Positions 7,135 to 55,341 of a stretch of DNA of 64,000 bases are shown here, one piece after another (within the stretch, counting starts at the first letter, position 1; every line of letters begins with the position of its first letter). This DNA is from Macrophomina tecta (lineage: Eukaryota; Ascomycota; Dothideomycetes; Botryosphaeriales; Botryosphaeriaceae), in assembly GCA_024180945.1 (NCBI GenBank), contig JAKSGN010000005.1:2728001-2792000 (forward strand), in the 5' to 3' direction. Below the pieces are notes generated by a model, which did not search any database, was not told the DNA's origin, and saw nothing but the letters and a program-made list of their open reading frames with translations. The position numbers and the translations under genes are program-made.

Positions 7135-7714
7135 TCAAGCAGTGAATCCAACTGCCCTCTTCACAATGCCGTCACTCACTCCACCCGGCACGATCTTTCC
7201 GACCTGCGAAAGCTCATTCAGCGGCAAGCTCTCCGCCGCGCCACCCTTACCCAGTCCGCCAGCAACGGGCACATTGTGCGTTAGTCCATCCGCAGCATCC
7301 AAACCCGGTAGCTGCGCAGCCCGCTTATGACCGACGCCGTCGCCGACGCCCGGCACGATGCGGCCGACCTGGCCAAGCGCGTCGGCGGGCGCCTCGCTGA
7401 ACTCGTCGGGCTTGACGTTGCCGAGGCCGCTGGCCAGCACGTCCGGGCTAAGGATGCCGGTCAGGGCGGAGAGGTCGGCTTGTCGCTTGTCGTGCCCGCT
7501 GTTGCCGCCGCCCAGGGGGTTGAGAGCGTCGAGGGGTAGGCTGTTGGTGCCGGCTCCGGGAACGGGGAGGGCTTTGAGGCTGCCCGTCAGGCTGTCGAGG
7601 CCAACCTGCCGCTTGGAGGGGACGGCGTAGCTTGGAGAGGAGTGGGAGGAAGAGCCCTCGCCGCCGTGGGAGGAGTGGTCGGCATCACCGTCGTCGGAGC
7701 CAGGGGAAGGGAGG
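7135..7714 (-). pseudogene. 3' half of a secreted Kex2-site protein gene, cut by hAT copy 1
   Basis: An open frame enters from the hAT border at 7714 and runs on the minus strand to TGA at 7135-7137. It has no start of its own. It encodes a Gly/Ala/Leu-rich chain with four Lys-Arg sites (PSKRQ, HDKRQ, GHKRA, VKRA), typical of Kex2 cleavage in the secretory pathway. Two segments before KR sites resemble each other: LGQVGRIVPGVGDGVGHKR and LSQVGKIVPGGVSDGIVKR. The missing 5' half is at 52147-52609. Joining 52147-52609 to 7706-7135, counting the shared octamer once, gives 1035 nt, exactly 345 codons. The hAT insertion broke the gene and the later inversion moved its halves 45 kb apart. Function unknown. 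Confidence 0.85.
7707..7714. repeat. Octamer AAGGGAGG flanking hAT copy 1 (exchanged target duplication)
   Basis: This octamer directly abuts the terminal inverted repeat at 7715. It does not match the octamer on the other side of the same element (10440-10447). It is the exact reverse complement of the octamer at 52602-52609 beside hAT copy 2. hAT elements make 8-bp target duplications, so the partner has been moved. Confidence 0.9.
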
Positions 7715-10439
7715 CAGACATCCCAGTAATAAATATATATTTATTATTAAGGGCATATTTATTGTTAAGCTTTTCCATAAGGATAATAATATAGACGCTG
7801 CCAATAAATATATATTGTTAACTATTAATAATATAGGCCCACTATTTTCCAGCGCCAATTCCCCCAGAGTGTTTCAGATTAAATTGCAGTCTTGTACGCA
7901 TATTACTGCTTATCAGGCCTCTAGATAGGAGGTGAACTCCAATGTTTGTAACTCCTAGCAACCGAAACTGCTGCCTCGCCATACCCGTCACGTTGCAAGT
8001 ACGCAGTTCGTAATACATCAGCGACATATCTCTACACACGACAATGGACGTCAACATATCCTCACTGCCCCAATCCAATGCCCCGTCAAGTTCTTCCTCC
8101 GTGGTACCCTCTGACAGTGCCTCACAAGTTGCCAGCACACTGTCAGAACCCGAGGCATCGTCAGCTCAGCATACGGTCAAGAGACGGAAACTGAGAGCCA
8201 CATCAACATGGGATCACTTTCGAGAAGCTCAAGGCGACGAGCCACGTACTATGAGCGGGAAATTACTTCACTACTGCACGCGTTGTCGCAATCCATCCTG
8301 GTCAACCCACATATCTGGCAACGCCCGCTATCATCTCGAGAAGGCTCATCACATACTTGTTCGAGAGGATTCAAAATCTCAAAACAGGCGCCAACTAGCC
8401 ATCGAAAATGCCTTCGCAAGAACAACCGGCAAGCGGCTGCAGCAAGTCAGGGAGAATGAGATGAACACTCTACGGAGTGTAATCAATGTCGATGCCTTTC
8501 GAGAGGCACAGATGTTGCTATCCGCACATAAACATTTACCGCTCAACTTCGTAACCTGGCCGGAATACCAGGCACTTCTGGCCGCGATAAACCCTGCCGT
8601 TGAAGAGTTCCTAACTGATTCCGGTAGCACAGTTGCGGCGGACTTGGATAGGGCCTACGATGCGCATCAACAATCCGTAAAGGAATGGCTAGAACGTGCC
8701 CGGAGCCTCGTACACATTGCTATGGACGTATGGTCTTCTCCTCAGCGGAAGGCCTATATCGCTGTTCACGCCCAATGGGTTGACGAGGCCTACAAACCTC
8801 GGAAAGCATTGCTAGGGCTACCAAACCTCCGCCGCTCTCACGCCGGCACGGCTATGGCACCTCACTTGATGACGATTATCCGACAGTACCACTTAGCGCC
8901 CCGAATCGGCTACTTCACTGGGGACAATGACGCAAAGAATGACACCTGTCTCCGCCAACTTGCTGTTGAGCTGTCGCAAGAGTACGGCCTTACACTTGAC
9001 CCAGTGTCCTCTCGAACGCGGTGTGCCGGCCACATCATTAACTTGTCCCTTCAAGCCTTTCTCTTTGCAACTAGTGAGGACGCTCTGCAGGCCGCAATTG
9101 CGCAGGCGCAACACGAGGTAAATGATGTAACAGTTGCGGACGCGTTACACGACCAAATTCAGTCGAACACTTGTCACAAGAGTCACGACAGGCGCAAGAA
9201 ACGCCATGACACTGCCGGCTGGCGGAGCATCGGCCCAATGGGTAAACTCCACAACATTGCGGTGTTCATCCGTAATTCCACAGTGCGCAACGATGCATGG
9301 GATGACATTGCAGAAAAGGCGCTTGGAATTGACAATATCACCCGTTGGAACTCATGGTTCAAGTTGCTTGATGCGGCTATCAGCCAAGAGGGTCCATTGT
9401 CAATATTCCTCAACCAATACCACAACGAGCTGGAAGACGACATCCTCACACATGATGATTGGCAAGTACTCAAAATGACTCACGAGTTCTTGCAGCTGTT
9501 TTACCAAGCGACCTTGGAGCAGCAAATGGAGTGGGCATCAATAGATCAGGTGCTAGAGAATATGGATATTCTTTTCATGCAGTTTGAGAATGCCAAGGTA
9601 AGCCATGGACGGCTCGATCGATTACCAGACCTGGACTGATGTTAAAGCAGGGCAAATACGCCAGCAACGCGCGTATGGTTCATTCCATTCACATGGGTTG
9701 GTGGGTTCTCTCGAAGCATTATGAAGAGAGTGACAGAAACCCAATATATGCCACGGCATTATTGCTCCATCCAGAAAAGCGCCGGAGGTACCTTGACCGC
9801 CACTGGGCAGAGGAATGGAGGCAGACCGCTATTGCTGGTGCACGGCAGCATTGGGCGAAGTACAAGGACCGGCCACTCCCGTCGGAGTCCGCGGCTCGGC
9901 TGAACGACGAACGACGGGAAGTAACACCGTACGAGCGTATCAAGCAGTCAATGAGTGTCTTGGATGAACCCGGAGATGAGGATGAATTCGAAAAATTCGT
10001 CAATTCTCCGCCAAGACCTATGACGACCAAAACACCGCTTGAATGGTGGTGTCGAGAAGAACAGAGGATTGAGTATCCACGTTTACACCAATTGGCCATT
10101 GACATACTAAGTGTGCCGGCGATGTCCGACGATCCGGAACGGGTATTCTCTTGCGCAAGGCGGACAATTTCTTGGGACAGGGCACGGCTCTCGCCTGATA
10201 CTATCGAGAAGCTTCAATGCCTGAGCAACTGGGTGAAGAATGACTTGGTCCGCAAAGTCTACGTGGCAGTAGATGGTAAGGTCATGGATATTGCTGGCGG
10301 CAACGACGACATGCATGGCGCTTCAGTTTTATATTAATAATTATTGATAAGCTTAGCAATCGATAATAATATTAGGATCTGCCAATGAATACATAAGAAT
10401 ATGTCAATATTATGTATTTATTTATTATTGGGATGTCTG
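7715..10439 (+). mobile_element. hAT DNA transposon, copy 1, apparently complete
   Basis: A 2725-bp element with terminal inverted repeats starting CAGACATCCCA and ending TGGGATGTCTG. A/T-rich subterminal regions (TAATAAATATATATTTATTA type) lie at both ends. It carries one uninterrupted transposase gene with a single intron. The second copy at 52610-55333 is in inverse orientation and differs by one deleted base and very few substitutions. There is no RIP signature. The left end sits in the Kex2-site gene and the right end lies 430 bp upstream of the C2H2 pseudogene. The flanking octamers differ from each other, which marks recombination with copy 2. Confidence 0.95.
8044..10337 (+). CDS. hAT transposase with BED zinc finger
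   Basis: Two exons, 8044-9597 and 9651-10337, flank a 53-nt intron (donor GTAAGC, branch-like CTGAT, acceptor GCAG) and encode 746 residues. The frame joins at NAK|GKYAS. An N-terminal BED-type zinc finger lies at about residues 58-100, with CTRC followed by HLEKAHH. The C-terminal hAT dimerisation region contains YPRLHQLAIDILSVPAMSDD and ERVFSCARRTISWDRARLS. A second residue of the RNase H-like core is likely in the AMDVWSSPQRKAYIAVHAQW segment. The protein excises and reinserts the element by cut-and-paste. No frameshift or stop is visible, so this copy could be autonomous; activity is not shown by sequence alone. Confidence 0.92.
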
Positions 10440-10447
10440 CTTGGGCG
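10440..10447. repeat. Octamer CTTGGGCG flanking hAT copy 1 (exchanged target duplication)
   Basis: It abuts the terminal inverted repeat ending at 10439. It does not match 7707-7714. It is the exact reverse complement of CGCCCAAG at 55334-55341 beside hAT copy 2. Confidence 0.9.
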
Positions 10448-10869
10448 TCATTGTATATGTTTACAGGGCCTGCAAGGCTGCAACACGAGAAGGATGCCAG
10501 TTGGCCGTTGGAGGTTGCACAGCAGCATCGCCCTTTCTGCAGCGCGAGCCGGTCATGCTAAAGCGGCAAGGCCTTCTGGAGCCCTTTCTATGAGTCCATT
10601 GCTTCCCCCCCACGGCCTGTGTAGACTCCGCTTGCCATTCCAGCCTGCACCCCGACCTATCGCACTTCTTGCAACTTCGCTGCCCCTTTTACCAACTCCT
10701 CCCTTCCGCTACACAAGCCTCGCCGCTACCTGTCAGCTCGCCCTGTTCTATGCTTTGATGGCGTGCAGTCTTCCAATCAGCAGCCGTGATGAAGCAATCT
10801 TGGTAACCCTTTTTTTTTTTTTAGCGCTGACGAAGAAATAGGGCGTACTGGAATCAAAAGGACACAAGG
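10448..10869. other. Upstream region of the C2H2 pseudogene
   Basis: No separate gene is supported. A T-homopolymer lies at about 10809-10822. If the inversion is undone, this stretch would instead adjoin the sequence now starting at 55342, so promoter elements may have been separated from the gene. Confidence 0.35.
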
Positions 10870-11495
10870 TTGCAGCACAACTCCTTGTCTGACGCGTTCT
10901 TCCTTCAATACTCGTCTGCAGCGGAGGCTTTGTCGAACCCTGTACTGAATGACATAAACGCATGGCATCCGCTGTCTGCCCAGGAAAGCCCTCCTATTAT
11001 CGGCGACAGCGATGGCCATACTGGTGCGCTGCTGTTTCCGCCAAGCTTCACATCGAGCCATTCGCTTGCACCTAGCCTCCATGCCGACCAGTCGTCTGGC
11101 ACCTACAATGCTTTTCGAGAGACCCTGCCAGCGTCTGGAATGTGGTCTGCAGGACACGCGCAGTTTGAGTCCGTGAAAACCTGTCCCCTGCTACCCTACT
11201 CTGGCATCTCCCCAGAAACACCCAATGGGGGCATAATGGACGTCATTCAACTGGCCCCCTCGTCTATGGACGCGGATTTGAATTGGAATCCCATCGGCCA
11301 GTGAACCGTTTACGATCTCCACGATACCGCCGTAGGGTCCGCTCGCGCCACAGATCAAGGACTTTCTGGGCTCCTGCCCTCTCTCAGCGATCAAGTCAAC
11401 GACACCACCGAAACGCATCGCCCCCTCTTTGGATACCCGAAATCTGCGCAATCGAGTAACGGTGCGTACCGATGCGCAACATGCGGCGAGCGCTT

Positions 11496-11500
11496 CTATT
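11496..11500. repeat. 5-bp target duplication CTATT, left of the Copia element
   Basis: CTATT directly precedes the left LTR and is repeated at 17982-17986 directly after the right LTR. A 5-bp duplication is usual for LTR-retrotransposon integrases. Confidence 0.9.
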
Positions 11501-11719
11501 TGTTGGAATATTTGATTCAGTAGTGTTTTGGATTCAGTTATGTCTTATACTCGTTGCACACCTGTCTCAGCAGGTAAGCAAGTTACATACCCGTTTTACC
11601 CTAGTAGGTAGAATAGGTATAAGGGAAGCCCGTACGGCCTCCCTCTACTAGATATGCCAATCTATGGGAACTCATCTTCATCAGTTGAATCAAGGCTGCC
11701 AATTAGTCATTTTCCAATA
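11501..11719 (+). repeat. Copia left LTR
   Basis: 219 bp, matching 17763-17981 closely. The last bases read CCAATA instead of CCAACA, a C-to-T change at the inner edge where RIP begins. Confidence 0.92.
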
Positions 11720-14700
11720 GTTATAAGCCCGGGTGCGTCTTAGGTGCCTTCCGTAATCTAAGCTATCCTCCAGAAGCACCTCTTTGTGCTACGTTTAAGC
11801 GTTCCGTGGCATCCGGACGTCTCGCTTGGCATTCTTTTACCATATAGTTATAAGCGGAGCCAAGTACCTCCCTTATTGGTTATTTTTATAACGGTTATCT
11901 AAACCATCACCAAGTGCCTATTTTAGCAGCCCTTTCTAGGTATAGCGTTCCTAGTAGGTATACTAGCTATCTAAGCGAGTTTTACTACGTACTAGCGCTT
12001 CCCCTAAGTTACCTACGGCCACGAGACTCGGCCCGATTATCTAATAAGCAACTACTAGCCACTACTAGTAACTATAGCCTTATTAAAGCCTATTATCGTT
12101 CTTAAGTCGTCCGATAACTAGGATAAGTAGTATTTCACTATCTAAGCCTAAGCGAAGCAGGGGAAAATCTTTAACTATATTAATCCGAACCTTATAGAGA
12201 AGCCAATCTAGCCAATTAAGCCACGTAGCCCTATAAAACTAAAAAACGACTCTATACGAGTATAGAAGCGTTATAAGCTACAACATAAAGACTATAAATA
12301 AGAGCTCCGAGAATACGAGAAGCTAGAAAAAGAAATTAATAATCTATTAACGGTTATTCTAGACTCTATTAGCTTCTCTCTCTAACCGATTCTTCGAAAA
12401 CTAAGAAATAACCTACACCCTTATTCTTAGCTATCTACGTTTAAAGCACAGCTTTAGTCTATATAGAAGACTTAAGAAAACCTCGTAATTAATTAGCTAA
12501 AGTAGCTTAAGAAATCACCTAGTAGCTAAAATATCGCTAAGTAGCTAGATTAATAGAAGAAAACACTATTTAAGGCGGAATTACTTAACCTACTTAACGT
12601 TTCTAGTAACTAAGGTAAGAAGAGCTTTCTAAAAACGCTTTTATCTTTTAATACTTAGTAGGCTACTAACTATAAGATTAGGCTTTAGAACGGTATTAAC
12701 GAGAAAAACGCTCCGCAAAAAAGCGTCTAGTAAGCCAAAGAGCAAAGGCGGCTAGAATCGTATAAGAGATAAGAAGGGGTAAAAGAAGGGTCTAAAATAA
12801 CTCTATTATATAGCGTCTCGTAGGCGATCGAGTAGAATACTAAAACTAAAAGAACCTATTCTAAAAGAAGAAGAAGAATTACCACTTTTACGCACTCTAT
12901 AAGTACGCCGCGAAGTAGTATTCGTTAGTTAAACTCTCTTCTAATAAGGGTTGTCCTACTTCGTTCCGCGCTAGTAAACGTTACCTGTTATTATTATTTC
13001 TATTATACTCCCGTAGCCGTGTTATAAAGTCTACTTATAGTAGAGGGCCTTCTTCTAATATACTAATTAGAGCCCTCCCCTTAAGCCGCCCCTTAAAGTT
13101 CTATTTTTTATATAAGAAGAACTATTCTCGCCTTAACTAGCTTATCTATCTTCTATCCTATAATAACGGTAAGCTTACTAAGCTACTAGCTAATTTTATT
13201 ATTAAATACCGCAACTACCAACGTTAAAATATAGCCGAAAATCTAAAGGTTATAAAAGTAGCCTTTACGGCTATACTACGTAATTAAAAGTAGGAATGAG
13301 GCCCTTCTAAATATATATATAGAGAGAATTACTAGCATTACTAATACGCGTATTATAACGTAGTAATTAGACTGGCTAATTAGACACCTAATAAAGAGTT
13401 TTAGGCTAAGATTAAGAAGAGCCTAGAGAACCCCTAAACTAAGTATTAAGTAGAGCGTTCGCTTAACCGTTCTAAGCGTAAACGTAAGAATCTGACTCCT
13501 TAGAAGCTATAAGAGAATCCGTAAGATTAGTAATTAACGAACGAATCGAATGATAGTAATTCTTTATTATTTCTAGCCGTAGTAGCCTTAGCTTTTAGTA
13601 CGTAATACGTTACTAAACCTACTATGCTTAAGCTCTTATAGATTACTAATACGGGCTCTACGCACTATATCTATAATCGATTTATATAGAAACGGTTTAA
13701 GAAAACTAAGAATACGAGTCTAGATAATTACGTTATAGCTAGAAATTTAACTATACTAATCGAAGCATTTAGAGAAGTAATAGTTAATATAACTAACTAA
13801 TAAGAAAACTACATTATTACCCTACTAGACGTAGTCTATGTACTATTATTTAAGGCTAACCTCATCTCCGTTACTAAGGTAAGAAATAAGGGTGTTTAGT
13901 TAGATATAGGCTATTTATACCTCTATAAAAAGAATGTTATTATAGTAAATCTAACTCTTAAGTATAACTACTTCTTTATAGAGTATAATAAGAGGTTAAA
14001 TAATTTAAAGGTTAACTTAAATCTTATTATCTAATTTTTACTAGCTACTTAATAGTACGATATATTTATCTATATAGGCTAAAACGCTATTAACGTGTTG
14101 CCTAAGGCAGTTTAAGGAACGGCTATTATAAATTAGAAGCTATCTAAGTACTATAATATATACGCTCGTACGAAGGCCTATTAATAGATTTCTCGAGCTA
14201 TAGAGCTAGAAGAATTATCTACGAAGGCCTTCTTTTAAATTTTATTTAATTTAATATAAATAATACGAGCCAACAACGGTAATTAGTAGATAACGTACGT
14301 AAAATATATATCTACTAAGTTTACTATTACGGTTACGCACGTTACTAAGAATAAGTATACTTAGCACCTCCTTAATATTATCTAAATAATTAAGTCTTAA
14401 TTTAAAAAGACGGTAGCATTTCTAAGATTAAATAGAGAAGTATTACTTATATACGCATTTAAGTAATAGCTTAAGTAGTAGGGAATTATCTATAAGATAT
14501 TAGCTCTCTATACGCCTTAGTAAAATAAAGCTTTAGAATGTTTAGAATACTCTATTATAGTTAAAGCACGCGCTCTACGCGTTAGTACTAACCTACCTAA
14601 AGGCCTTTAGTCTAAAATAATTAAGACAGCCTCCTACATCTATAATAGAACCCTAATAAAGCAGCACTAGTAAAAGACTTTATTCGAGTTAGTCTATAAA

Positions 14701-17540
14701 AAGCAGTCTAAGGTGGCTTACCTACGAGTATATAGCTATAAAGCCTACTTACTACTTAAGACGATTCTATACTTATATAAGCTAAACGAGCGAGTCTTAG
14801 TTAGATATTTAGTTAAATACGATTTAACTAATATCTACCGCATTTAGTATCTATTAAAGAATTATATTATATGATTAAGAGATGTTACATTTAACGAATC
14901 TAGTAAGTTCTTACTAAAGAACTTAGACGAGCTACTAATAGCTTAGTAATAAGATAACGAGCTAGAATTAGTTATACCGCATATTATACTTAACGAGAAG
15001 GACATTATCTACTTAAATAAAAAACTAGAAATATCTACTAACGATATAAGCTAAAAATCTACACCGAATTAAGTAGAAAGTTTCTAAAAGAAATTAATGC
15101 CTATATAGGCTAATTATCTACTAAGCCCGTTATTATTAGTAAGTAGTATTTAAGTCTAAGTACTAGATTCGCCTTAGTTATCCTCTTAAGGATTAGGGGA
15201 TAAAGAATAGTAGTAAACTCGAAGGCTTAGACCCCTTTTACTAGTTTAGTATAAAACTAAGCCGGATCTAGATGCTACTATTAGTAACTATATACCTAGA
15301 GGCTATAATATATTAGCTAATATTAATACGAGCCTAATTATCTAAGAATTAAAGACACGTTGCTAGTGCTATAATATATATATTACGCTAATATAGAATA
15401 ATATATTTAGTTATTAAGGGCTATACTCGTCCTTTATAACTATCCTAAACGAGCTACGAACACGTGCTATAAAGTATTACTAAACCGAGCTCCTACGAAT
15501 TTATAAAGATTAACTACCCCCTAAGCTACGGTTTTACTACGAAATCTTTAAATACCTAATAAAACCCTACCTACTAAAAGCTATTTAAATAGAGCTTTAG
15601 AAAGTCTAAAATAAGGGAGTATAGAAGATAGTATAAGTAAAAGAAGCGTAAAGTCTTTAAAAAAAGATTATTCTACTTACTTAGATATTTAAATATAAAT
15701 TCGATAAATACGATTAGCTTATAAAAGTTAAGACTCGTATCTATATAAGGGGAGACTTATAAAGCACCTAATAAAATATATATATAGCTACCCTAGCCTT
15801 CTAAATCTTTTAAGTACTAATAGCAATTATCTATATGTTTAATTTAGAGATACGTTAGTATAATATTATTAATACCTTTCTCTATATATTTCTTTAAGAA
15901 AAGACGTTCTACTAACCGTCTAAAGAAATAAACCTCTCTACTAGCTAAATACTACTACTACTCTAAGTATTATACGGCTTAAAAGAATTACTAGTATTAT
16001 AGTAAAACTACTTCTACTAGATACTAAAAGAGCTTAGATTAGAATTAATTCTAAACGCACTATATCTCTATATAAATAATTACTTATTTATCTTCTTCTT
16101 CGTAGATAACGTAATTATAGCCTACTATAAGCGTAATAAGTAGTACGCTAATATATTTTAAAAAGACTTATTTTAGTGCTATAAGATACGAATAATAGAT
16201 AAGGCTTAATAGTTCTTAGCCTTACGAATAGTATAGAATTATAAGTAACGGCTCTTATAGCTCTTATAAAAGTTATATATTAACAGCCTTATTACGCGTT
16301 ATAGTGTTAAGAAGACTTATATACTAGCTATATCTCTTCTATTAAATAAAGTACTAGAATCGAATTAAGGCACGTATATAAGCATATAAAATATCTATAC
16401 GTACTAAAATAAGATAGGCTTAGCTTAGTTTATAGCTATAAGTATATATATAAATATAGCCTACGCCTATTTAGTACTATTAGTCTATCTTATTAATCTC
16501 TTAGCTCGCTACTTAGAGCTAGTATAACGTCTCCTCGAATATCTAGTAGGGACTAAGAACCTCGCCTTATACTATTAAGAATTCTAGAAGAACTAGGCTA
16601 ATATCTTTACTATTAATAGTAATGCGGCATATATAAATGATCTAAATACACGCCGTAGTTACTAAGAATCGATTATTATAATATATAATACGCTAGTAGA
16701 CTAGAAAGCAGTTAAATAACTAACTATTATTATCTTAACTACGGAAGTAGAGCTACTCGCTTTATCTAAAATAGCTAAGTAGTACTTCTAATAGAAGCAT
16801 CTATTTAGGAATATTTAGTTCGATCTAGAATATAAGATTAAGATTTAGTACGATAATACGTAAACACTTCGCCTTATAAAGAAGAAAATAGGTAAGCTAA
16901 ATACTAAGCTACGCTACGTTAATATTTACTATTACTAGCTACGCTAAGAGGCTTAGATAGGTAATATTTGCCTTTACTAAACGCCTACGGCCGTTATACT
17001 TATAGACGGCTTAACTAAAGCCTTACTATATTAGAAATACTATTAGTTCGTTAACTAAATTAGCCTTATACCTCTCTTTAAGTAACGGCCCAAGTCGATT
17101 TTAGTAAATAGTATTATTACTTTTATAGAGGTATAACTCTCTTCCCTAGTTATCTTTATAAAAGAAAGAAAGAATTAGAAAAAGAAGCGGATTAACTAAT
17201 CTCTAAGAAGGCCGGCCCTAGCTAGGCTATACTATAAAATAATACTAAGACTAATAAGCTACGTTAGTAGCTAGGCTTAGCACGCCCTATAGATTTATCT
17301 AGCTAGAGTATTACGCCTATCGGCTTAGAAATCTAGCTAATATTAGATAACCCTCTTTCTAACTACTAGTTATCTAGTAGAAGGGCCCTTAATTCACTAC
17401 CTAGGTATATCTAATCCCGTGATCGCTAGTGTCTAATAGGTAATTAGCCTAAATATAGCTACACGTAGCGTATATAATAGTAGTTAGCTTGGTTACTTTA
17501 GATAGAAAGATTTTCGCTTTTTAATCTTATATACCCACTC

Positions 17541-22591: not shown

Positions 22592-22606
22592 GTAAAACCC
22601 CAAGTA

Positions 22607-44760: not shown

Positions 44761-45315
44761 GGTCCTTCAATGCGTCTCCAGGGCAGAAAATGTCGGGCGA
44801 AGAATTTTGCGGAGCAGTGGCGTGCATTGGTTATCGACATTGAGAAGGAACTTTGCGCTTGTTGGCAGTATTGTGGCAACCGATTCGAGCCAGTTGTGCC
44901 GATTTTGCAATTAGAGTAGCTCCATTGGAGTTGGAGACTTCTGAACTACTTCATAGCCATTTACCACATTCCATGCCCCGTCAGCGTCCTTGTGAGATGG
45001 GCTCGTATTGAGCGTAAGCTGGGTTGCAGCGCACGGGTGAATTCTCTGTTGCGGCCGGACGGATCATCAAGTCCCTCGGAACGCATACCCCGCTCGGTTT
45101 GAGAACTCAGGCTGTACACTTTCATCAATTCGAGGACAGGACATCAGCACGATTGTTCAATTCCGAGGTCAGAGGGAAACGTGGAGAGCAGGCATGGCTA
45201 CTTGGGAGTCCGAGCTTCCAGGGCAAGGAGTTTCGGAACGCAGTTGGAGAATATTGCGCTGTTCTCTGCTATCTGAAAGGTAAGTCGTTTGTTTCAATCG
45301 TCAGATAAAAAGACG
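44761..45315. other. Intergenic region between AKR remnant and HET gene 2
   Basis: No gene is supported. Open frames here lack motifs. Confidence 0.35.
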
Positions 45316-47472
45316 TTATCCCAGTGTAATAAACTTCCACTCCCTCTTTTCAAGCGCCATCCAGTCCTTTTCGGAGATCATCGTACATCCGAGTCGGTAG
45401 GCAACACTGTCCCTCCACTCCACAGCCATCACCACCAAACGCTTCGTTGCAGTCATACAAACAATTACGGCGTCCACTTTTGTCACACCATGCCCCTCGG
45501 CCGATCTCCTTTGCCGCAGCTCTTTCAGCTCTCTGCTTCCAATTATGGTCATTAGTCCATCAAATAGAGATGCTTCAAGACTAGCAACACTGGACCAGAA
45601 GTACAATAGGCCCGCTGGACGTTGGGTCGAAGTTGAGGCCAAACTGCTCAGATCTTTTGGAAGCCTGCATTCAGGACCCTGCCACGGTGAACGTCGCTCC
45701 GCCTTATCGGCACCGTGGCTTCCCGGCTCGTTTATGGGAATAATTTCTCCGGACGTGTCTGAGGTCCAGAAGTCGATGACTCTCTGAAATTCGTCCATGC
45801 GGCTGCCTTCGAACCCAGTGCCATATACGTAATGTCGATGGAAGTCAATCCAAGCTGTGTGGCTTGTGCTGCCCCACGCCGCCCAGCTCCACGAAGGGAA
45901 CGACACTTCTCGGATGACTCCATTCGACAGGGCAACTTTTGTGCTCGCATGGTTTCGAGCATGGTCTACGCGGAAGTACCATCCCAGTGACCGTGAGAAT
46001 TGACTCTGAGGGATGCCCCAAAAGAAGCGGTCCGCTTGCACCGTAGACAATCTGGTGCAGATTCCAGAGAAGGCATTGATCAGGTCGGATGGGTAAGTCA
46101 GACGCCGCTGTATGTAGTTCTTCAACAAATCGTCGTAGAGCTGAAAGTAGTCATCGGAACCCGAAACACTGCGAGGAAGCCTGACCGCCGCCGTCCACGG
46201 CAAGATCTCGAGGTTCGTTCTCGCCGTGTCCTCAAGCGCAACTTCTTCCAGCCACACGGCTTCCCGACACCTCCAATAAACCTGGTGTTCAGTGAAGATA
46301 AGGCACCGGCCGGAGAAGAGAAGCTCTTGCATGGTCCATGCCCTCTGAGCCCACGTCGACTTTCGTATGATGTTCCCGGACTCCGAGCTATCGCAGATAA
46401 GGGTGAGGAGATCACCATCTGGAAGATGGAGAACATCTTGAATATGCTCGCGCTCATTGCCGGGTACGCCGGGAAGGCCTGCCTCAGAGTCTTGTCCACT
46501 GGCGGCGACGATGGTGAGCAGAGCATTCTCGTAGATCCGATCCATTTTCATAATTTGCGACTGCTGCATTCCGATGTCGTCCTGAATAATGCAGAGAGCA
46601 TCCACCCACAAGAACCTCTCTCCCATGCTTGCAACCAAAGACATGGCATCACGGATCGTCCTCGGGATTTCTGATGTTTTGAGTGATCCAGGGGCGGTCA
46701 GAAGACTGGAGTTTGCCGCCAGGTGCTTGAGCATCTTCCCCATGCCCCAAACATAGCTCAACGCCGCGTAACGGCATGCCGGAGGGGTCTTCACGATGCA
46801 AAGCTGCTGGACGTCAATCACAAAAACCGGCATGAATCCAGTCATCCCTCCGGCTGAGGTCGAGTCGGGCGTACACTTGGCAAAGTGTTTTCTTTCACAT
46901 GTGCGCAGCCAGGTTTTCGGCAATTCCGTGTCTATTCCGGAGAGCACCTTGCGTCCGGCGCCAGCGTCGGTATTTTTTGCTGGGTCGCTATGGGTGTGTT
47001 TTGCCGCAGCGGAGTAGCCTGCCTGGAGTCTTAAGATCTGTCGCACACTGTTCGAACCCGAATCATGCTTTGCTAGCTCCCACGGCAGGGGAACCCACGA
47101 GGACGATTCTTCGGTGTGTAGCTGTACCCAGGCTGTGGTCGTGTGTGTATGAGGTCCATCCTGGAGAGCGCCTGCGGGATGGGTTTCTGTGCTCGAGAGG
47201 CAGAAGTTGACGTTGGACAGCAGCTTGCACTGACCAGCGGTATCTGCATAGTCCCGACGGAGGTGTTTGGCGACGAGCTTACAGAAGTCACAGCGCTGCT
47301 CGCGCTGAGCAATTTCGTCTGTCGTTCCCAGACTCCGGATGCGACTGGTTTCTTCCTCATCACGCCGTTTGGTGCAAAATCGGGCCGGTTGAGCGATGTG
47401 CTTGAAATCGATATCCGCGCATATCTCGCACAGCCGGCTTCGTGAAACCATATTGACCGGGGGGTTCGTCAT
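45316..47472 (-). CDS. HET-domain protein 2 (heterokaryon incompatibility)
   Basis: Intronless 718-residue protein starting at the ATG at 47470-47472 (MTNPPVNMVSRSRLCEIC). The N-terminal region has paired Cys motifs, LCEIC and QRCDFCKLV, as in many large fungal HET proteins. HET motifs follow: YAALSYVWG, RFLWVDALCIIQDD and WAQRAWTMQELLFSGRCLIF, with YENALLTIVAASG between them. These mark a standard cytosolic heterokaryon-incompatibility effector whose partner is unknown. The frame stays open 37 codons upstream of the chosen ATG without another ATG. No defect is visible, so this gene may be functional. Confidence 0.88.
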   Translation of the reverse strand: MTNPPVNMVSRSRLCEICADIDFKHIAQPARFCTKRRDEEETSRIRSLGTTDEIAQREQRCDFCKLVAKHLRRDYADTAGQCKLLSNVNFCLSSTETHPAGALQDGPHTHTTTAWVQLHTEESSSWVPLPWELAKHDSGSNSVRQILRLQAGYSAAAKHTHSDPAKNTDAGAGRKVLSGIDTELPKTWLRTCERKHFAKCTPDSTSAGGMTGFMPVFVIDVQQLCIVKTPPACRYAALSYVWGMGKMLKHLAANSSLLTAPGSLKTSEIPRTIRDAMSLVASMGERFLWVDALCIIQDDIGMQQSQIMKMDRIYENALLTIVAASGQDSEAGLPGVPGNEREHIQDVLHLPDGDLLTLICDSSESGNIIRKSTWAQRAWTMQELLFSGRCLIFTEHQVYWRCREAVWLEEVALEDTARTNLEILPWTAAVRLPRSVSGSDDYFQLYDDLLKNYIQRRLTYPSDLINAFSGICTRLSTVQADRFFWGIPQSQFSRSLGWYFRVDHARNHASTKVALSNGVIREVSFPSWSWAAWGSTSHTAWIDFHRHYVYGTGFEGSRMDEFQRVIDFWTSDTSGEIIPINEPGSHGADKAERRSPWQGPECRLPKDLSSLASTSTQRPAGLLYFWSSVASLEASLFDGLMTIIGSRELKELRQRRSAEGHGVTKVDAVIVCMTATKRLVVMAVEWRDSVAYRLGCTMISEKDWMALEKREWKFITLG

Positions 47473-47744
47473 GTTTTGCACGGTTTCGATCAGTGTATGA
47501 ACTCTCCAGGTGTCGAGTGCGGGGCAACAGACCGTCAGGCAACAGTGGATCCTTATTGAAAAATGGCTGTGAGCTTGGACCAATCACATTCTCTTTGGCC
47601 GGTCGAGAAGAAAGGTGCCGTACCTTCATTACATGATTTTCGAGACAAGATCGTCAGCATCTCTGCATCGACTGACTGTTCTCCCAGTAATTTACCAGAT
47701 ATGTCACAGCCGTACTCCAGCTACGCACTATCCCCTACAACCTC

Positions 47745-48740
47745 CTAGCGGGTGTCCTGCCAAGCCAAGTCCGGTCCATTGCAGTTTATTTTATCTGCGC
47801 CCGAATGTCTTCCCGCCCCTTCAAGCCGAAGCCTTAACTCGCGAGGAATGAGCTTGATGTAAAGCGGTGGCCTTTCCCACATCAAATATGCTTTCTGATC
47901 CAACCAGTTGTTTTTCGCCTGCTCGGCAAGTGCGATGTCAAAGTTCAGGAGGAAAGCAGTAAGGACCCATTGCATTTCGTGCCACGCAAGACTTCGACGC
48001 ATTTCGGTCAGCCTACGCCCGGGACATGCGTACGACGAGTAAAGACGTACTTCTTTCCAATGCAGTTTCTCGGGCTCAGGCTGAAAGGCTCGCATGCACT
48101 GAGCTTGTCCGTGGAAAAGCAAGGGTCCGGATCGGGGGAGCCACCGCTCCGGATGGAAGCCCTCCGGGGCATAGAAGTTCCGCTCGCTGTGGTGGGCGGC
48201 GTAGCTGGTGACGTAGACGGTCGTCTGGGCCAACGTCAGAAGAAAAGAACTGCGAAAAAAAAAAAAAAAAAAAAGAAAAACCGACGTAACAACAAAGAGC
48301 ACTTGACTTGGGCGCTACTGGGCGTCCGCAGATGATGGCTCCCTCCACCGGAGCCACCCTCGCCATGCCCACAGGGGCCGGCGGATATATCCGCAGCGCC
48401 TCAAGCGTTGAGATACGGCAACTGCGCCAGCGCCTGCGTCGAGAGCCCGTCGTCACCGGCGCCATCAAACGCTTCCCGGACCTCATTGTTCAGCTTGCGC
48501 AGCACGTCGTGATGGTTGCACAGCAGCCAGGTGATACCGCTGAGTGCCGACGCCGTGGGGTCTGTCCCGGCAGCCATGATGGCCGAGCCGTTCGAGTGCA
48601 TCTCGGCGCGCGACAGACCCTTGCCGCTCTCGGCGTTGTGCAGCACAAACGTCCAGATGTCCGGGCGGTCGGTCTGGCGCGCGAGGCGGCGGTCGACGCG
48701 CTCGACGGCGAAGGCGCCAAAGCTGTTGACTCGATTAGTT
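47745..48740 (-). pseudogene. Cytochrome P450 C-terminal remnant
   Basis: Minus-strand remains of a fungal P450, a heme monooxygenase, from before the I-helix to the C-terminus. In order: FGAFAVERVDRRLARQTDRP, the I-helix MAAGTDPTASALSG, LAQLPYLNA, the ExxR element EALRIYPPAP, GFHPERWL, heme loop FSLSPRNCIGK, and LLNFDIAL. The heme loop has Ser where FxxGxRxCxG expects Gly. Introns fit at 48225-48318, which contains a 20-nt T tract, and 48013-48050, which is only 38 nt. A small deletion with frameshift separates LPYLNA (TGA at 48401-48403) from EALR. One extra C in the CCCCC run at 48134-48138 shifts frame after ERWL. The N-terminal half is absent. Confidence 0.75.
48255..48274. repeat. A20 homopolymer in the P450 intron
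   Basis: Twenty A in the plus strand, a pyrimidine tract in the transcript direction, inside the intron at 48225-48318. Confidence 0.95.
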
Positions 48741-51700
48741 CGGAAGTGGCGGCAACATCAGTGCGCATTTTGTCTGCCTTGAGTAGATTCTTCCCATCGG
48801 GACTGGCGCCTAACCAGCAATCGGCAATCGGCCATCGCCAGATTTGCTGTACGCCCTTTCGATGGTTATTGCTATGCGTTGTGGCTCAAGATCTCGGAGA
48901 CAAAAGGTGGCCAAGTTCGGGCGAGCAAAAAAAAAAAAAAAAAAAAAAAGGTGGATGTAAAGGGAGAGGGGCTGACGTCCGGAACTTTAGCCGCTGCGGG
49001 GGACTCGCCACAACTACGTCAAAGGGTCTCGCCCTGAGGCTTCGAGCCCATGTGCAGATCCGTTGGAGGCCTCACAGCCTGACCCGGATCTTCGTCTATC
49101 CGCGCGTACCAAAAATCGACGCCCCTCATTTGCCTTATTGAACCACTCACCCCACCATTCCAAAACCCAGCCGGGACTTCCACCACGGCGCCACGCTTCA
49201 TCACAAGCCTCTTCTTCTGTGCCGCACCACTACCGCAGCGCCCCACCGCCCCTTTACCGTCTCCAGGGCCGCTTTCAGCACACCAGAATCGTCGAGGCAC
49301 GACTGGACTCGACGACGGGACAGATCCTTGGCCGCCTCTGAACCATTCCAGTCGCTCGGCCCGGATCGCTCTGTGCGACGATCACACTGCCTCACTCCCA
49401 CCAACTCTTTGCAGTCGCGTCGCACGGGTCATCCAATCTCTCAACCATCCCCCATCCGGCTCGCCGGGGAAGCGCGCTGCGCAGAGCCCGCGGAGAGCCG
49501 AAGCCATCTCAAATCGCGCAGAATGAATGGTGACGTGAGCTGAAACAGACAGGACTACGAAGAAGAAGGTTGCGGATAGCGGGGGTAGGTGGCGGTGGCT
49601 AGTGGGCCGTCGCGTTTGATGTAGCGAGCGCTCAGCAGCCTGACCTCTTCGGGACGAGCGGGCGAGCTAATGTTCGCGTGGGTTGGTGGTCTGCGGAGGC
49701 ACGGCCGGGCTGGCACGGCGGGCAGCGCGAACGGAGGAATTGTTGGGCGAGCTAGAGGAATAATGAGAGTTCAGAAGAGGATGACGAGAGTAAGGGTGAG
49801 GTGTGATACCCGAAAGGGGAAGGCTGAACCGGAAGAGGAAGCGCACCAGGAAAAACATTGCCATCAACCAGCACAGCGATGATTACGCTGTCATCGTTGG
49901 CGGCAGAACCGTTCTCGGGCACGTCATGCGCCGGCGATGGACCACTCTGCCCTGCTTCGCCGCCTTGTCGATAGGGAACGGTCCCGTATGCTGCGAGAGG
50001 ATCCTGATGTTTCGATCGTTCAGGATGCGTTCGTGAAGAACATACCGGGCCATGTGGCGAGCGATGCCGACAGCTACTGCGGGATTAGCCCCATCACGTC
50101 CAAGGGACCTGAGGCAGTCGCAAGCGTGAAAGTGCCTGCAGTTGTGTCCCAAGGCTGTGCGGCAACGAGGCTTAAACCACCTGTTCTGAAAAATTTCCTG
50201 CTGTAGCAGAGATATTTGCTGGGGGCTTCGAGGACTGTGGAAGCGACCAAATGTATGTCTGTGGCGGTTTTGATGCTCTAGTCCCTCACAGCGATGATGG
50301 AAATCTGCAGGGCCTTTCCACAGTTTACCCGATGTTGGCAAGAATAATTCCTATTATCCTTCCGGAGTGCTGTCTCAGAAGACGCCTTCGAGTAATTCCC
50401 ACCGCACAGTGTTTTAGCACGTATTGAAGCCCGCATCATCCACGGTCCTTTGGCGAAGATACCGTACGACATTCTGCCTGACATCCTGGGCCTTCTCCAT
50501 CTCATGTCAGTTGAGAACCTGACTATAGCGCCTTGGCCAGTTTGCGCATCCCAGGGGGCAACAATGGCTTCTGGAAACTGCAGCCCAAGAACTCAATGTC
50601 TTGGCTCTTTGAGCTCACAATTTGATGGAGGACGAGAGACGCTTGGGAGATAGGGAGATACGCAAAGCCTTGTTATGTTTTAGAGGCTGACGAGGCCAAC
50701 GCGATGGGTAAGTGGATCTTTTATAATTGTTGCGAACGGCTGCCGGTTTTGAAGAGTCTGTGGGCAGTTGGCGGATATTTACGTACATATCATGATTGTC
50801 TGGTGTAGCCTGTCGCTGAGGGATGTCCGGAAGTAGCAACGGAAGACACGGGGTAACAATGGTGGTCTTTACATCCCAATTCTTGCGTTTCAAAAGTAGA
50901 ATGAACTCCAACAAAGAGAACACCAGCGTACCTCCCTGCCTGCCTCAGTCACAGCCTCTATTCGAATCGTCTTGAAGAAGTGTGATGGGTGGGTAATGGA
51001 GACCTCAGACACTCTCGCCAATGAGGCATTAGTGTCAGCACAGTGACCAGTGATCATTCTGCACATTGTTTTGAAGTCTCATCGAGCTTAACTGAATCGT
51101 GATGGCAGGAATGCATGGTCACCAGGTAGCTGCGGCGTGCGAAGGCCCTGATTGGCTGCTTGTTGATGGTGATCACTGAGCCAAAGGGACATCGCGTAAC
51201 CCAAAATTTGTCAACACCCATGCCATTAGCAACAATAGCTATGGAAGGAAATGATACGGCTGGAATGAGACGACCCATGGTTATTAAAGATACTTTGGAA
51301 AGGTAGCCAGCGTCATGCCGATTCTCCCCTTTCCCCCGCTTCATCCGTCTGCATTTCGCGGTACTTTCTTTTCTTGGCAGCGCACCTGGAAAAAACCAGT
51401 AAAACTCTCCAATACACCTTCAAGAAATAATTAGAAAACCCGGTATATCTTGAGGGTGACGAGTCCCACATCGTTGTCCAGGAGACGCGACTCTTAGCAG
51501 AAGGCTTGCTCCAACGCAGACATGTGCTCTTCAGCTGGGGCCGCGGCGTCCCGTGAAACACCCAACAGCTGTCATTCGCCCAAGGATACAGCTAAAAGCT
51601 TAAGGACGGATGATCTACGCCAACACTAGACTAATTGGGCGACTAGCGCTATTGCAGGACACTAACCTTGATGCCAAGCATAAGCTAAAGTCGCAGCACA

Positions 51701-51979
51701 TCAATTAAAATTACTTATTGCAGTTCGGCCACGCCACATCGTCATTAGCTGGCTAGCCATTTTGGTTTCCTCTAGCCCAAATGAGAGTGGCCTCCGCAGT
51801 CGCTGAAGCTCGACTGCTCCGGGCTAGAAGGTTGACCTGCGATAGCACGAAAACTTACTTTTGGCTACACAAATAAGCCAAATTGGAGGTCAAAACAGGA
51901 GGTGGGATGCTCGGTCCAACATCATAGTCTGCGAGGCTGATCGTGCAGGCGCCCTGGTCTCAGCAAACGCGCAAGGAGC
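48741..51979. other. Long stretch without a supported gene
   Basis: Overlapping open frames occur on both strands but none shows recognisable domains. A 23-base A tract lies at 48927-48949. Around 50455-50500 the plus strand reads AKIPYDILPDILGLL, which resembles the start of an F-box and could be a gene relic. The minus-strand frame 49883-50341 has Cys/His-rich text with no recognisable spacing. I call none of these. Confidence 0.4.
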
Positions 51980-52003
51980 CAATTGAGAGGGACAGTATAA
52001 AGT
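51980..52003 (+). promoter_or_regulatory. CCAAT and TATA boxes of the Kex2-site gene
   Basis: CCAAT at 51980-51984 and TATAAAG at 51997-52003 precede the ATG at 52147 by 144 bases, a normal spacing for a fungal core promoter and 5' leader. Confidence 0.55.
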
Positions 52004-52146
52004 AGGTGCGCGGATCCGACCTCTTGTTCAGCATCAGCACCCACATCGTCCGTTCCACACTCCTTCCAAGTACGGGCTATCTTTCCGTTCGTTGTGCATA
52101 CAATCCGACACTCTTTCATTGCGACTCACGGTCAACCTTCGCCACC

Positions 52147-52609
52147 ATGCGCTCCAATAGCATCATCCCCTTTCTCCTCTCACTCTCCACGGCGGCCTCC
52201 GCTGCTGCCATCCCCACCGATGCCGGACCTACGGGACAGCTTAACAGTCTGCCTGTGAACCCTAATAATATTCTGCCAGAAGACTTCCCAGCTCCTCCCG
52301 ATGCTCTCAAGAAAAAGGCTGGGGGCCTTCCCGGCGGTGATCTCACCCACTCCATTGCCGGCCACGGTGCTGGCCTTCCTAGCCTCCCGTCTTATGGCGG
52401 CTACGGCGAGGAAGGTGAGCACACCGGTGATGAGAGCTACAGCCCGGACTCCGACGATGAGGACGACGACTCCGACTCTGACTCTGAGCCTGACGATGAC
52501 GGCGTCGACAAAGACAACGACGAAGATGACGACGAAGACGACGACGATGACGACGACGAGAAGGACCCCTCCTCTGAGGTCTCCGGCAGCCTTGGCCATG
52601 GCCTCCCTT
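52147..52609 (+). pseudogene. 5' half of the secreted Kex2-site protein gene, cut by hAT copy 2
   Basis: Start ATG at 52147 in a strong context (CGCCACCATG) opens a signal peptide, SIIPFLLSLSTAASAAAIP. A mature region follows with a Gly-rich part and a long Asp/Glu/Ser tract at about residues 100-140. The frame then runs into the hAT terminal repeat at 52610 and would stop within the element. The native continuation, with four Kex2-type KR sites, is on the minus strand at 7706-7135. The acidic tract may act as a propeptide, which is inference. With the CCAAT and TATA boxes, a truncated acidic protein could still be expressed. Confidence 0.85.
52602..52609. repeat. Octamer CCTCCCTT flanking hAT copy 2
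   Basis: Exact reverse complement of 7707-7714. It differs from the octamer on the other side of copy 2 (55334-55341). Confidence 0.9.
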
Positions 52610-55333
52610 CAGACATCCCAATAATAAATAAATACATAATATTGACATATTCTTATGTATTCATTGGCAGATCCTAATATTATTATCGATTGCTAAGCTT
52701 ATCAATAATTATTAATATAAAACTGAAGCGCCATGCATGTCGTCGTTGCCGCCAGCAATATCCATGACCTTACCATCTACTGCCACGTAGACTTTGCGGA
52801 CCAAGTCATTCTTCACCCAGTTGCTCAGGCATTGAAGCTTCTCGATAGTATCAGGCGAGAGCCGTGCCCTGTCCCAAGAAATTGTCCGCCTTGCGCAAGA
52901 GAATACCCGTTCCGGATCGTCGGACATCGCCGGCACACTTAGTATGTCAATGGCCAATTGGTGTAAACGTGGATACTCAATCCTCTGTTCTTCTCGACAC
53001 CACCATTCAAGCGGTGTTTTGGTCGTCATAGGTCTTGGCGGAGAATTGACGAATTTTTCGAATTCATCCTCATCTCCGGGTTCATCCAAGACACTCATTG
53101 ACTGCTTGATACGCTCGTACGGTGTTACTTCCCGTCGTTCGTCGTTCAGCCGAGCCGCGGACTCCGACGGGAGTGGCCGGTCCTTGTACTTCGCCCAATG
53201 CTGCCGTGCACCAGCAATAGCGGTCTGCCTCCATTCCTCTGCCCAGTGGCGGTCAAGGTACCTCCGGCGCTTTTCTGGATGGAGCAATAATGCCGTGGCA
53301 TATATTGGGTTTCTGTCACTCTCTTCATAATACTTCGAGAGAACCCACCAACCCATGTGAATGGAATGAACCATACGCGCGTTGCTGGCGTATTTGCCCT
53401 GCTTTAACATCAGTCCAGGTCTGGTAATCGATCGAGCCGTCCATGGCTTACCTTGGCATTCTCAAACTGCATGAAAAGAATATCCATATTCTCTAGCACC
53501 TGATCTATTGATGCCCACTCCATTTGCTGCTCCAAGGTCGCTTGGTAAAACGGCTGCAAGAACTCGTGAGTCATTTTGAGTACTTGCCAATCATCATGTG
53601 TGAGGATGTCGTCTTCCAGCTCGTTGTGGTATTGGTTGAGGAATATTGACAATGGACCCTCTTGGCTGATAGCCGCATCAAGCAACTTGAACCATGAGTT
53701 CCAACGGGTGATATTGTCAATTCCAAGCGCCTTTTCTGCAATGTCATCCCATGCATCGTTGCGCACTGTGGAATTACGGATGAACACCGCAATGTTGTGG
53801 AGTTTACCCATTGGGCCGATGCTCCGCCAGCCGGCAGTGTCATGGCGTTTCTTGCGCCTGTCGTGACTCTTGTGACAAGTGTTCGACTGAATTTGGTCGT
53901 GTAACGCGTCCGCAACTGTTACATCATTTACCTCGTGTTGCGCCTGCGCAATTGCGGCCTGCAGAGCGTCCTCACTAGTTGCAAAGAGAAAGGCTTGAAG
54001 GGACAAGTTAATGATGTGGCCGGCACACCGCGTTCGAGAGGACACTGGGTCAAGTGTAAGGCCGTACTCTTGCGACAGCTCAACAGCAAGTTGGCGGAGA
54101 CAGGTGTCATTCTTTGCGTCATTGTCCCCAGTGAAGTAGCCGATTCGGGGCGCTAAGTGGTACTGTCGGATAATCGTCATCAAGTGAGGTGCCATGGCCG
54201 TGCCGGCGTGAGAGCGGCGGAGGTTTGGTAGCCCTAGCAATGCTTTCCGAGGTTTGTAGGCCTCGTCAACCCATTGGGCGTGAACAGCGATATAGGCCTT
54301 CCGCTGAGGAGAAGACCATACGTCCATAGCAATGTGTACGAGGCTCCGGGCACGTTCTAGCCATTCCTTTACGGATTGTTGATGCGCATCGTAGGCCCTA
54401 TCCAAGTCCGCCGCAACTGTGCTACCGGAATCAGTTAGGAACTCTTCAACGGCAGGGTTTATCGCGGCCAGAAGTGCCTGGTATTCCGGCCAGGTTACGA
54501 AGTTGAGCGGTAAATGTTTATGTGCGGATAGCAACATCTGTGCCTCTCGAAAGGCATCGACATTGATTACACTCCGTAGAGTGTTCATCTCATTCTCCTG
54601 ACTTGCTGCAGCCGCTTGCCGGTTGTTCTTGCGAAGGCATTTTCGATGGCTAGTTGGCGCCTGTTTTGAGATTTTGAATCCTCTCGAACAAGTATGTGAT
54701 GAGCCTTCTCGAGATGATAGCGGGCGTTGCCAGATATGTGGGTTGACCAGGATGGATTGCGACAACGCGTGCAGTAGTGAAGTAATTTCCCGCTCATAGT
54801 ACGTGGCTCGTCGCCTTGAGCTTCTCGAAAGTGATCCCATGTTGATGTGGCTCTCAGTTTCCGTCTCTTGACCGTATGCTGAGCTGACGATGCCTCGGGT
54901 TCTGACAGTGTGCTGGCAACTTGTGAGGCACTGTCAGAGGGTACCACGGAGGAAGAACTTGACGGGGCATTGGATTGGGGCAGTGAGGATATGTTGACGT
55001 CCATTGTCGTGTGTAGAGATATGTCGCTGATGTATTACGAACTGCGTACTTGCAACGTGACGGGTATGGCGAGGCAGCAGTTTCGGTTGCTAGGAGTTAC
55101 AAACATTGGAGTTCACCTCCTATCTAGAGGCCTGATAAGCAGTAATATGCGTACAAGACTGCAATTTAATCTGAAACACTCTGGGGGAATTGGCGCTGGA
55201 AAATAGTGGGCCTATATTATTAATAGTTAACAATATATATTTATTGGCAGCGTCTATATTATTATCCTTATGGAAAAGCTTAACAATAAATATGCCCTTA
55301 ATAATAAATATATATTTATTACTGGGATGTCTG
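52610..55333 (-). mobile_element. hAT DNA transposon, copy 2, inverse orientation
   Basis: 2724 bp with the same terminal inverted repeats as copy 1. It is one base shorter because GGG at 8450-8452 of copy 1 is GG here (54597-54598 on the plus strand). Two coding substitutions were noticed: QLFYQ to QPFYQ and SKHYE to SKYYE. There is no RIP signature. Confidence 0.95.
52712..55004 (-). pseudogene. hAT transposase, frameshifted copy
   Basis: Same gene structure as the copy 1 transposase, with start ATG at 55002-55004 and the intron at 53399-53451. A one-base deletion at 54597-54598 shifts the frame after KRLQQVR, so translation ends at about codon 139, after the BED finger but before the catalytic core. 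Copy 2 cannot supply transposase but keeps both ends, so it could be moved by copy 1 protein. Confidence 0.92.
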
Positions 55334-55341
55334 CGCCCAAG
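55334..55341. repeat. Octamer CGCCCAAG flanking hAT copy 2
   Basis: Exact reverse complement of 10440-10447. It differs from 52602-52609. Confidence 0.9.

What the first reader, a model, noticed from the sequence alone, without database searches (positions are those of the whole stretch)
7707..55341. About 42-kb inversion between two inverted hAT copies, proven by exchanged 8-bp target duplications
Copy 1 is flanked by AAGGGAGG and CTTGGGCG, copy 2 by CCTCCCTT and CGCCCAAG. Neither pair matches within a copy. AAGGGAGG is the exact reverse complement of CCTCCCTT, and CTTGGGCG of CGCCCAAG. Two independent insertions followed by homologous recombination between the inverted elements gives exactly this pattern. 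The segment between them, with two HET genes and all LTR elements, has been turned around relative to the insertion-time order.
Basis: partly seen in the sequence, partly recalled or inferred. Interest (0 to 1): 0.9.

Follow-up and report, generated by a model that had tools for sequence, protein, structure and literature searches.

The report
Transposon copies that shuffled a genome
Two near-identical copies of a young mobile element in a fungal genome carry each other's 8-base insertion scars, so the 42-kb stretch between them was likely flipped by recombination between the copies, and 38 of 102 copies read across the genome have mismatched scars, most of which recur at another copy.

Summary
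Copy 1 (7715-10439, +) and copy 2 (52610-55333, -) of a 2.7-kb hAT element differ at four places, and their flanking octamers are reciprocally exchanged. The window lies in a 54.1-Mb, 37-contig assembly, probably of Macrophomina or close kin (one esterase, 94% identical to M. phaseolina MS6). I read both ends of 102 family copies: 64 have a perfect 8-bp duplication, 38 do not. Of the 38, 27 5' octamers and 27 3' octamers recur on the opposite end of another unequal copy; chance gives about 0.6 for the whole family. They form six reciprocal pairs, this one included, one closed trio and five open chains. The two window copies are not sequence twins, and one crossover between element positions 1138 and 1782 returns the commonest haplotype. 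That favours ectopic recombination over transposase-made inversion. Misassembly is the main surviving rival: four contigs start at or inside an element, and neither reads nor a relative's genome was available. The mechanism is known from Drosophila Galileo; the genome-wide scale, if real, is new to me.

The parts
7707..7714 (+). octamer X (AAGGGAGG) at the 5' end of copy 1
   Evidence: recurs as reverse complement at 52602-52609
7715..10439 (+). hAT copy 1, 2725 bp, 11-bp perfect terminal inverted repeat CAGACATCCCA; transposase of 746 aa predicted with one 53-bp intron (9598-9650)
   Evidence: (PF05699 in the second exon)
10440..10447 (+). octamer Y (CTTGGGCG) at the 3' end of copy 1
   Evidence: recurs as reverse complement at 55334-55341
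10440..52609 (.). segment inferred to be inverted (42,170 bp); holds two HET genes (40162-41970 +, 45319-47583 -), a ferritin-like gene (20174-20827 +) and AT-rich repeat blocks
   Evidence: the inversion itself is inferred
52602..52609 (+). octamer X (CCTCCCTT) at the 3' end of copy 2
52610..55333 (-). hAT copy 2, 2724 bp; one G fewer in a G run at element position 735, which breaks the reading frame (possible homopolymer sequencing error)
55334..55341 (+). octamer Y (CGCCCAAG) at the 5' end of copy 2
52147..52608 (+). first part (154 aa) of a protein that looks secreted (my reading of its N-terminus; no signal predictor was run), cut by copy 2
   Evidence: no Pfam match
7138..7713 (-). open frame of 192 aa cut by copy 1, in the same codon phase through octamer X as the 52147-52608 frame; probably the rest of that gene
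   Evidence: no Pfam match; no homologue at E<=0.001; parts weakly alike (E 0.073)

Best explanation
The 42-kb segment was likely inverted by reciprocal homologous recombination (ectopic crossing over) between two hAT copies that had inserted in opposite orientation at two sites, which would leave each copy with one of its own and one of its partner's 8-bp target duplications. Shown directly: the inverted copies, the reciprocal octamers, the 8-bp duplication at 64 of 102 copies, and octamers shared crosswise between many other copies. Inferred: that two separate insertions came first, that the crossover fell inside the element (best placed between element positions 1138 and 1782), and that the assembly is right here. 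The crossing-over machinery would be the host's; the transposase need only have made the copies. Genome-wide the same process probably made at least 20 exchanges, both inversions and translocations.
For: Reciprocal octamers on inverted near-identical copies. 8-bp duplication is the rule for the family: 64 of 102. Among the 38 unequal copies, 27 of 38 5' octamers and 27 of 38 3' octamers are found on the opposite end of another unequal copy. Over all copies there are 32 such matches (the 27 plus five that come from repeated or doubled flanks) against a mean of 0.57 and a maximum of 3 in 500 chance draws. Closed sets: six reciprocal pairs and one trio. Undoing all closed sets gives 10 linear and 0 circular molecules; random orientations avoid circles in 12.4%. 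Linked pairs lie on the same contig in 8 of 21 cases against 54 of 703 for all pairs of unequal copies (P 1e-4, though pairs within a chain are not independent). Two of 6 reciprocal pairs are inverted and under 50 kb apart, a class of 10 among 5253 pairs (P 5e-5, the 50-kb limit chosen after seeing the pairs). The window copies are not twins: copy 1 alone carries two substitutions that occur in other copies, and one crossover returns a haplotype held by 7 other copies of the 41 read in full. M. phaseolina isolates 11-12 and Al-1 differ by large inversions and translocations (PMC6829926, abstract and section 7).
Against: No reads and no relative's genome could be examined, and the sequencing method of this assembly is unknown to me. 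Contigs C16, C24 and C25 all start at base 5 of an element and C35 starts inside one, so the assembler stumbled on this family. Eleven of 38 octamers on each side have no partner among the unequal copies. Chimerism of the window copies is only consistent with, not proven by, four variants, one of them a homopolymer indel; a crossover that returns a haplotype seen elsewhere exists for 3 of 6 reciprocal pairs only, leaving aside trivial cuts, and the haplotype returned here is the commonest one. Unequal copies do not cluster significantly (14 neighbouring pairs against 10.9, P 0.13). At mean 0.055% divergence the burst is very young for 20 or more rearrangements.
Confidence: 0.72

Rival explanations
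1. Misassembly: the assembler joined the wrong flanks through two near-identical elements, here and at other unequal copies; the real chromosome has both duplications intact and the opposite orientation.
For: About 104 copies (104 5' ends, 107 3' ends), those read in full differing by 0.055% on average from their majority; contigs C16, C24, C25 begin at the same element base and C35 inside an element; the 735 G indel in 3 of 41 full copies may be residual homopolymer error; a swap of two copies gives the same reciprocal octamers.
Against: 2.7 kb is shorter than usual long reads (general knowledge; the reads used here are unknown). Copies carry their own variants: 23 distinct sequences among the first 30. 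Partners are enriched on the same contig and at short inverted distance, which random path errors would not give; linked pairs share a rare substitution in 3 of 10 cases against 19 of 820 of all pairs. Contigs C29 and C37 have lengths that are exact multiples of 5,000, which suggests, as a guess only, cutting on Hi-C bins. In print, M. phaseolina assemblies differ by inversions and translocations.
Confidence: 0.2
2. [quoted passage not shown]
For: Gives nearly the same outcome (Delprat et al. 2009, PMC2775673, passages). The C3 pair shares two rare substitutions and the C6/C7 pair one, as sisters would, so it may apply there.
Against: The window copies share none of their variants and copy 1 alone carries two substitutions seen in third copies; in 4 of 6 reciprocal pairs at least one partner has such a substitution that the other lacks.
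Confidence: 0.05
3. Reversed-ends (alternative) transposition of Ac/Ds type.
For: hAT elements of maize do this (PMC8225341, passages).
Against: It uses elements in direct orientation, makes one new matching duplication and loses the fragment between the ends; here the copies are inverted, no octamer matches within a copy, and both octamers have their partner.
Confidence: 0.01
4. Chance match of octamers.
For: None beyond short length.
Against: Chance mean 0.57 matches for the whole family against 32 observed, 27 of them between unequal copies.
Confidence: 0.001

Closest known systems
Drosophila buzzatii inversion 2z3 and Galileo (Delprat et al. 2009, PMC2775673; passages seen)
   Same: Two inverted copies of a DNA transposon with exchanged target duplications flank an inverted segment; read as ectopic recombination.
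   Different: Galileo is of the P superfamily with 7-bp duplications; the non-inverted chromosome was sequenced there, not here; here the same sign recurs at many copies of one genome.
Styx in Zymoseptoria tritici (Badet et al. 2023, PMC10853768; abstract and passages seen)
   Same: Recently active DNA transposon in a crop fungus, linked to large rearrangements; new copies reported as not affected by genomic defences.
   Different: There followed in a pedigree, with fusions, deletions and duplications; in the passages I saw, exchanged target duplications are not used as the record.
Verticillium dahliae rearrangements over repeats (Faino et al. 2016, PMC4971763; passages seen)
   Same: Inversions and translocations over similar transposons, read as homology-based repair.
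   Different: Found by comparing strains, with different element families; here one family, one genome, read from its own insertion scars.
Ac/Ds reversed-ends transposition in maize (PMC8225341; passages seen)
   Same: hAT elements at both ends of inversions, 8-bp duplications.
   Different: Transposase makes the inversion and a new matching duplication; here none.

Membership tests
hAT superfamily element | 8-bp target site duplication | tested here: met
   64 of 102 copies exact; 0 of these 64 are 9 bp
hAT superfamily element | short terminal inverted repeats | tested here: met
   11 bp perfect, CAGACATCCCA, weaker beyond
hAT superfamily element | transposase with C-terminal hAT dimerisation domain | tested here: met
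   PF05699 E 1.5e-15 in the second exon; the first exon alone gave no Pfam match; several relatives are named AC transposase
Inversion by ectopic recombination between transposons (criteria of Delprat et al. 2009) | two homologous copies in opposite orientation at the ends of the segment | tested here: met
Inversion by ectopic recombination between transposons (criteria of Delprat et al. 2009) | exchanged target site duplications | tested here: met
   family control
Inversion by ectopic recombination between transposons (criteria of Delprat et al. 2009) | both copies chimeric | tested here: inconclusive
   variants at 735, 1138 in copy 2 and 1782, 2002 in copy 1 fit one crossover, but are too few to prove it
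Inversion by ectopic recombination between transposons (criteria of Delprat et al. 2009) | single target copies in the non-inverted chromosome | not testable with these tools
   the genome tool states that this genome has no relatives there
Hybrid-element insertion | the two copies are sister copies of one element | tested here: not met
   no shared variant; copy 1 alone has two substitutions seen in third copies
Reversed-ends transposition (Ac/Ds) | direct orientation, new matching duplication, lost inter-element fragment | tested here: not met
   inverted copies, both octamers reciprocally paired

The most novel reading that the evidence does not exclude
One very young hAT burst has reshuffled a whole fungal genome: about a third of its copies have traded flanks with another copy, giving at least 20 inversions and translocations, and the exchanged 8-bp scars form a register from which the earlier chromosome order can be read from a single genome without any relative. 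Most exchanges came from crossing over between distinct copies, and a minority (the C3 and C6/C7 pairs, whose partners look like sister copies) may have been made by the transposase itself through hybrid-element insertion, so two routes would run side by side in one genome.
Probability: 0.55. Interest if true: 0.8.

Novelty: new member of a known kind. Interest (0 to 1): 0.6.

Why it matters
Exchanged target duplications have been used as the sign of transposon-mediated ectopic recombination, in the case I read for one inversion and with the uninverted chromosome at hand. Here one genome gives many, with closed reciprocal sets, which would let rates, partner choice (distance, orientation, kinship) and mechanism be measured directly. 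Isolates of M. phaseolina are reported to differ by large inversions and translocations; this would supply a concrete, testable cause in a crop pathogen. If instead it is misassembly, the same octamer test is a cheap quality check for any assembly rich in young DNA transposons.

Tried and rejected
Telomere repeats to judge chromosome ends: no exact (TTAGGG)4 in the assembly. Homologue spanning the X breakpoint: the 192-aa part found none at E<=0.001 among 934 candidates (that search only sees proteins of 0.55 to 1.75 times the query's length), so gene continuity rests on codon phase and weak likeness. Clustering of unequal copies: not significant. Copy age: unequal copies average 1.78 differences from the family majority against 1.17 for equal ones (23 and 18 copies), but the sets were chosen differently (L001-L030 are the best matches to copy 1; L186-L195 were picked as partners), so I draw nothing from it; the 41 are not a random sample. 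The repeated AGTGGGAG flank of C31:2121186+, C31:2271100- and C25 belongs to another repeat with 15 full-length matches of that stretch, so I do not count it as exchange; the C16 flank is also repeated (5 matches at 87-100%). C10:694092- and C36:323017- share both 150-bp flanks and may be one locus assembled twice; both are among the 64. By the counts one more copy should lie at the end of the list, on C37; searches did not locate it. It, four copies at contig starts with one end readable and one diverged copy on C28 are not in the 102, nor is a diverged copy on C21. I saw no report of this case in the listings of searches (open-access full texts only). The assembly was not matched to a published one; PMC8867778 (passages) describes other, more fragmented Macrophomina assemblies.

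Full report
The claim was checked first on the bare sequence. The two hAT copies are at 7715-10439 (+) and 52610-55333 (-); they are identical except for one G indel and three substitutions. The element has an 11-bp perfect inverted end, CAGACATCCCA, a transposase of 746 aa predicted with one 53-bp intron, and the hAT dimerisation domain in its second exon.

The window is G000:C5:2728001-2792000 of a 54.1-Mb assembly in 37 contigs. The host is probably Macrophomina or near kin: the esterase at 549-2336 is 94% identical to one of M. phaseolina MS6, the next hit 47%. That rests on one gene. Pattern searches with up to three mismatches found 104 5' ends and 107 3' ends of the family. I read both ends of 102 copies, the two window copies among them. 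In 64 the octamers are equal; in 38 they are not.

The unequal copies are not random damage. Of their octamers, 27 of 38 on the 5' side and 27 of 38 on the 3' side recur on the opposite end of another unequal copy. Over all copies there are 32 such matches, the 27 and five more that come from repeated or doubled flanks; a model that keeps base composition by position gives a mean of 0.57 and a maximum of 3 in 500 draws. Matches of the wrong kind are few: 5' with 5' two and 3' with 3' ten, counted in both directions and traced to the repeated or doubled flanks listed; 5' with the reverse complement of 3', one. The links form six reciprocal pairs (C5, this window; C3:3115434+/3147778-; C1:169185+/C6:2826458-; C6:594196-/C7:2125643-; C13:161106+/C31:1145423-; C29:3143001+/C37:3315847+), one closed trio on C30, five open chains holding 17 copies, and six copies without a link. 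If a closed set of n copies needs n-1 exchanges and a chain of n copies at least n-1, the minimum is 20; this count is inference. Two of the five open chains hold five copies each; one mixes C7 with C20, the other C7 with C6 and C27. Copies with no partner could be what deletions between direct copies leave behind, or their partners may lie in unassembled sequence; I did not test that.

What made them? Ectopic crossing over predicts reciprocal octamers, linear molecules when undone, and a bias to near partners. Undoing the closed sets gives 10 linear and 0 circular molecules. Linked pairs are on one contig in 8 of 21 cases, against 54 of 703 pairs of unequal copies (P 1e-4, taking pairs as independent, which those within a chain are not), and 2 of 6 reciprocal pairs are inverted and closer than 50 kb, a class of 10 among 5253 pairs (P 5e-5, limit chosen afterwards). 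Reversed-ends transposition would leave a new matching octamer and lose DNA; it does not fit. Hybrid-element insertion gives a very similar outcome but two sister copies. In 41 copies read in full, not a random sample, the mean difference from the family majority is 0.055%. The window copies share no variant; copy 1 alone has 1782T and 2002C, both seen in third copies; one crossover between 1138 and 1782 returns the majority haplotype, held by 7 other copies. A crossover that returns a haplotype seen elsewhere exists in 3 of 6 reciprocal pairs, this one included and trivial cuts left aside, so this is weak support. In 4 of 6 reciprocal pairs at least one partner carries a substitution seen in a third copy that the other partner lacks. 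The C3 pair (two shared rare substitutions) and the C6/C7 pair (one) could be sisters, so hybrid insertion, or a local hop before crossing over, stays open for them. Seven of 105 pairs of shared sites show all four combinations, which fits exchange between copies, though polishing of reads in repeats could also mix variants, and three of the seven double types are copies with equal octamers.

The serious rival is misassembly. Contigs C16, C24 and C25 all begin at base 5 of an element, and C35 begins inside one. Swapping two copies in an assembly would look the same as a real exchange, and a relative's gene order would fit both. Against it stand the short length of the element, the proximity and kinship biases above, and the published finding that M. 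phaseolina isolates differ by inversions and translocations (PMC6829926: abstract, section 7 and passages read). Contig lengths of exactly 3,215,000 and 3,345,000 hint that the contigs were cut on Hi-C bins; that is a guess. I give the rival 0.2.

At octamer X the element cut a frame: 154 aa of a protein that looks secreted end at 52608, and a 192-aa frame begins at 7713 on the other strand, in the same codon phase through the octamer. The two parts have no Pfam match. Since its role in a probable crop pathogen is unknown I kept the parts apart. It is a second, weaker sign that the two X flanks once met.

Known cases: Galileo in Drosophila has inverted copies, exchanged duplications and reported chimerism; Styx in Zymoseptoria and repeats in Verticillium show transposon-linked rearrangements in fungi (passages). 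What I did not find in the listings is a single genome in which one family's scars are exchanged at this scale; my ten searches covered open-access texts only. I rate the finding as a new member of a known kind with unusual reach.

Noticed in passing
window 8044-10337: The first exon of the hAT transposase (query 8038-9639) is 90% identical to proteins of Fusarium oxysporum and 81% to one of Purpureocillium lavendulum, though the host looks like a dothideomycete (recalled placement of Macrophomina); horizontal transfer is likely but untested. A Macrophomina phaseolina MS6 fragment is 84% identical over 48%.
   Followed up: partly
window 12000-17700 and 23000-39100: AT-rich blocks of 31% and 32.6% G+C between direct repeats that look like LTRs (11501/17763, 22681/39129, 24836/33150), as after repeat-induced point mutation; the young hAT copies show no such bias (13 of 59 substitution occurrences are C>T or G>A).
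   Followed up: partly
window 56280-58310 (-): A third HET-domain gene just outside the inverted segment, besides the two inside.
   Followed up: no
L178/L179 (G000:C31:1681103-1686570): A hAT copy split by an insertion of about 2.7 kb with an 8-bp overlap of the flanking element parts (336-343), perhaps another hAT-like element nested in it.
   Followed up: partly
G000 contigs C16, C24, C25, C35: Three contigs start at the same base (5) of the element and one inside it: assembly breaks at this family.
   Followed up: yes
G000 contigs C29 and C37: Lengths are exactly 3,215,000 and 3,345,000, as if cut on 5-kb bins.
   Followed up: no
L002:4241-5740: Another repeat with 15 full-length matches of this stretch listed at 100%, so more than one family is young here.
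   Followed up: no
L184 (C28), L185 (C21): Older copies of the same hAT family, 2-4% diverged and incomplete.
   Followed up: no
L093/L094 and L156/L157 (C10:694092-, C36:323017-): Two copies share both 150-bp flanks near contig ends: duplicated chromosome end or doubled contig.
   Followed up: no
C3:3115434+ and C3:3147778- (L186, L187): Inverted pair 32 kb apart with exchanged octamers that also shares two rare substitutions found in no other of 41 copies: local hop plus crossover, or hybrid-element insertion.
   Followed up: partly
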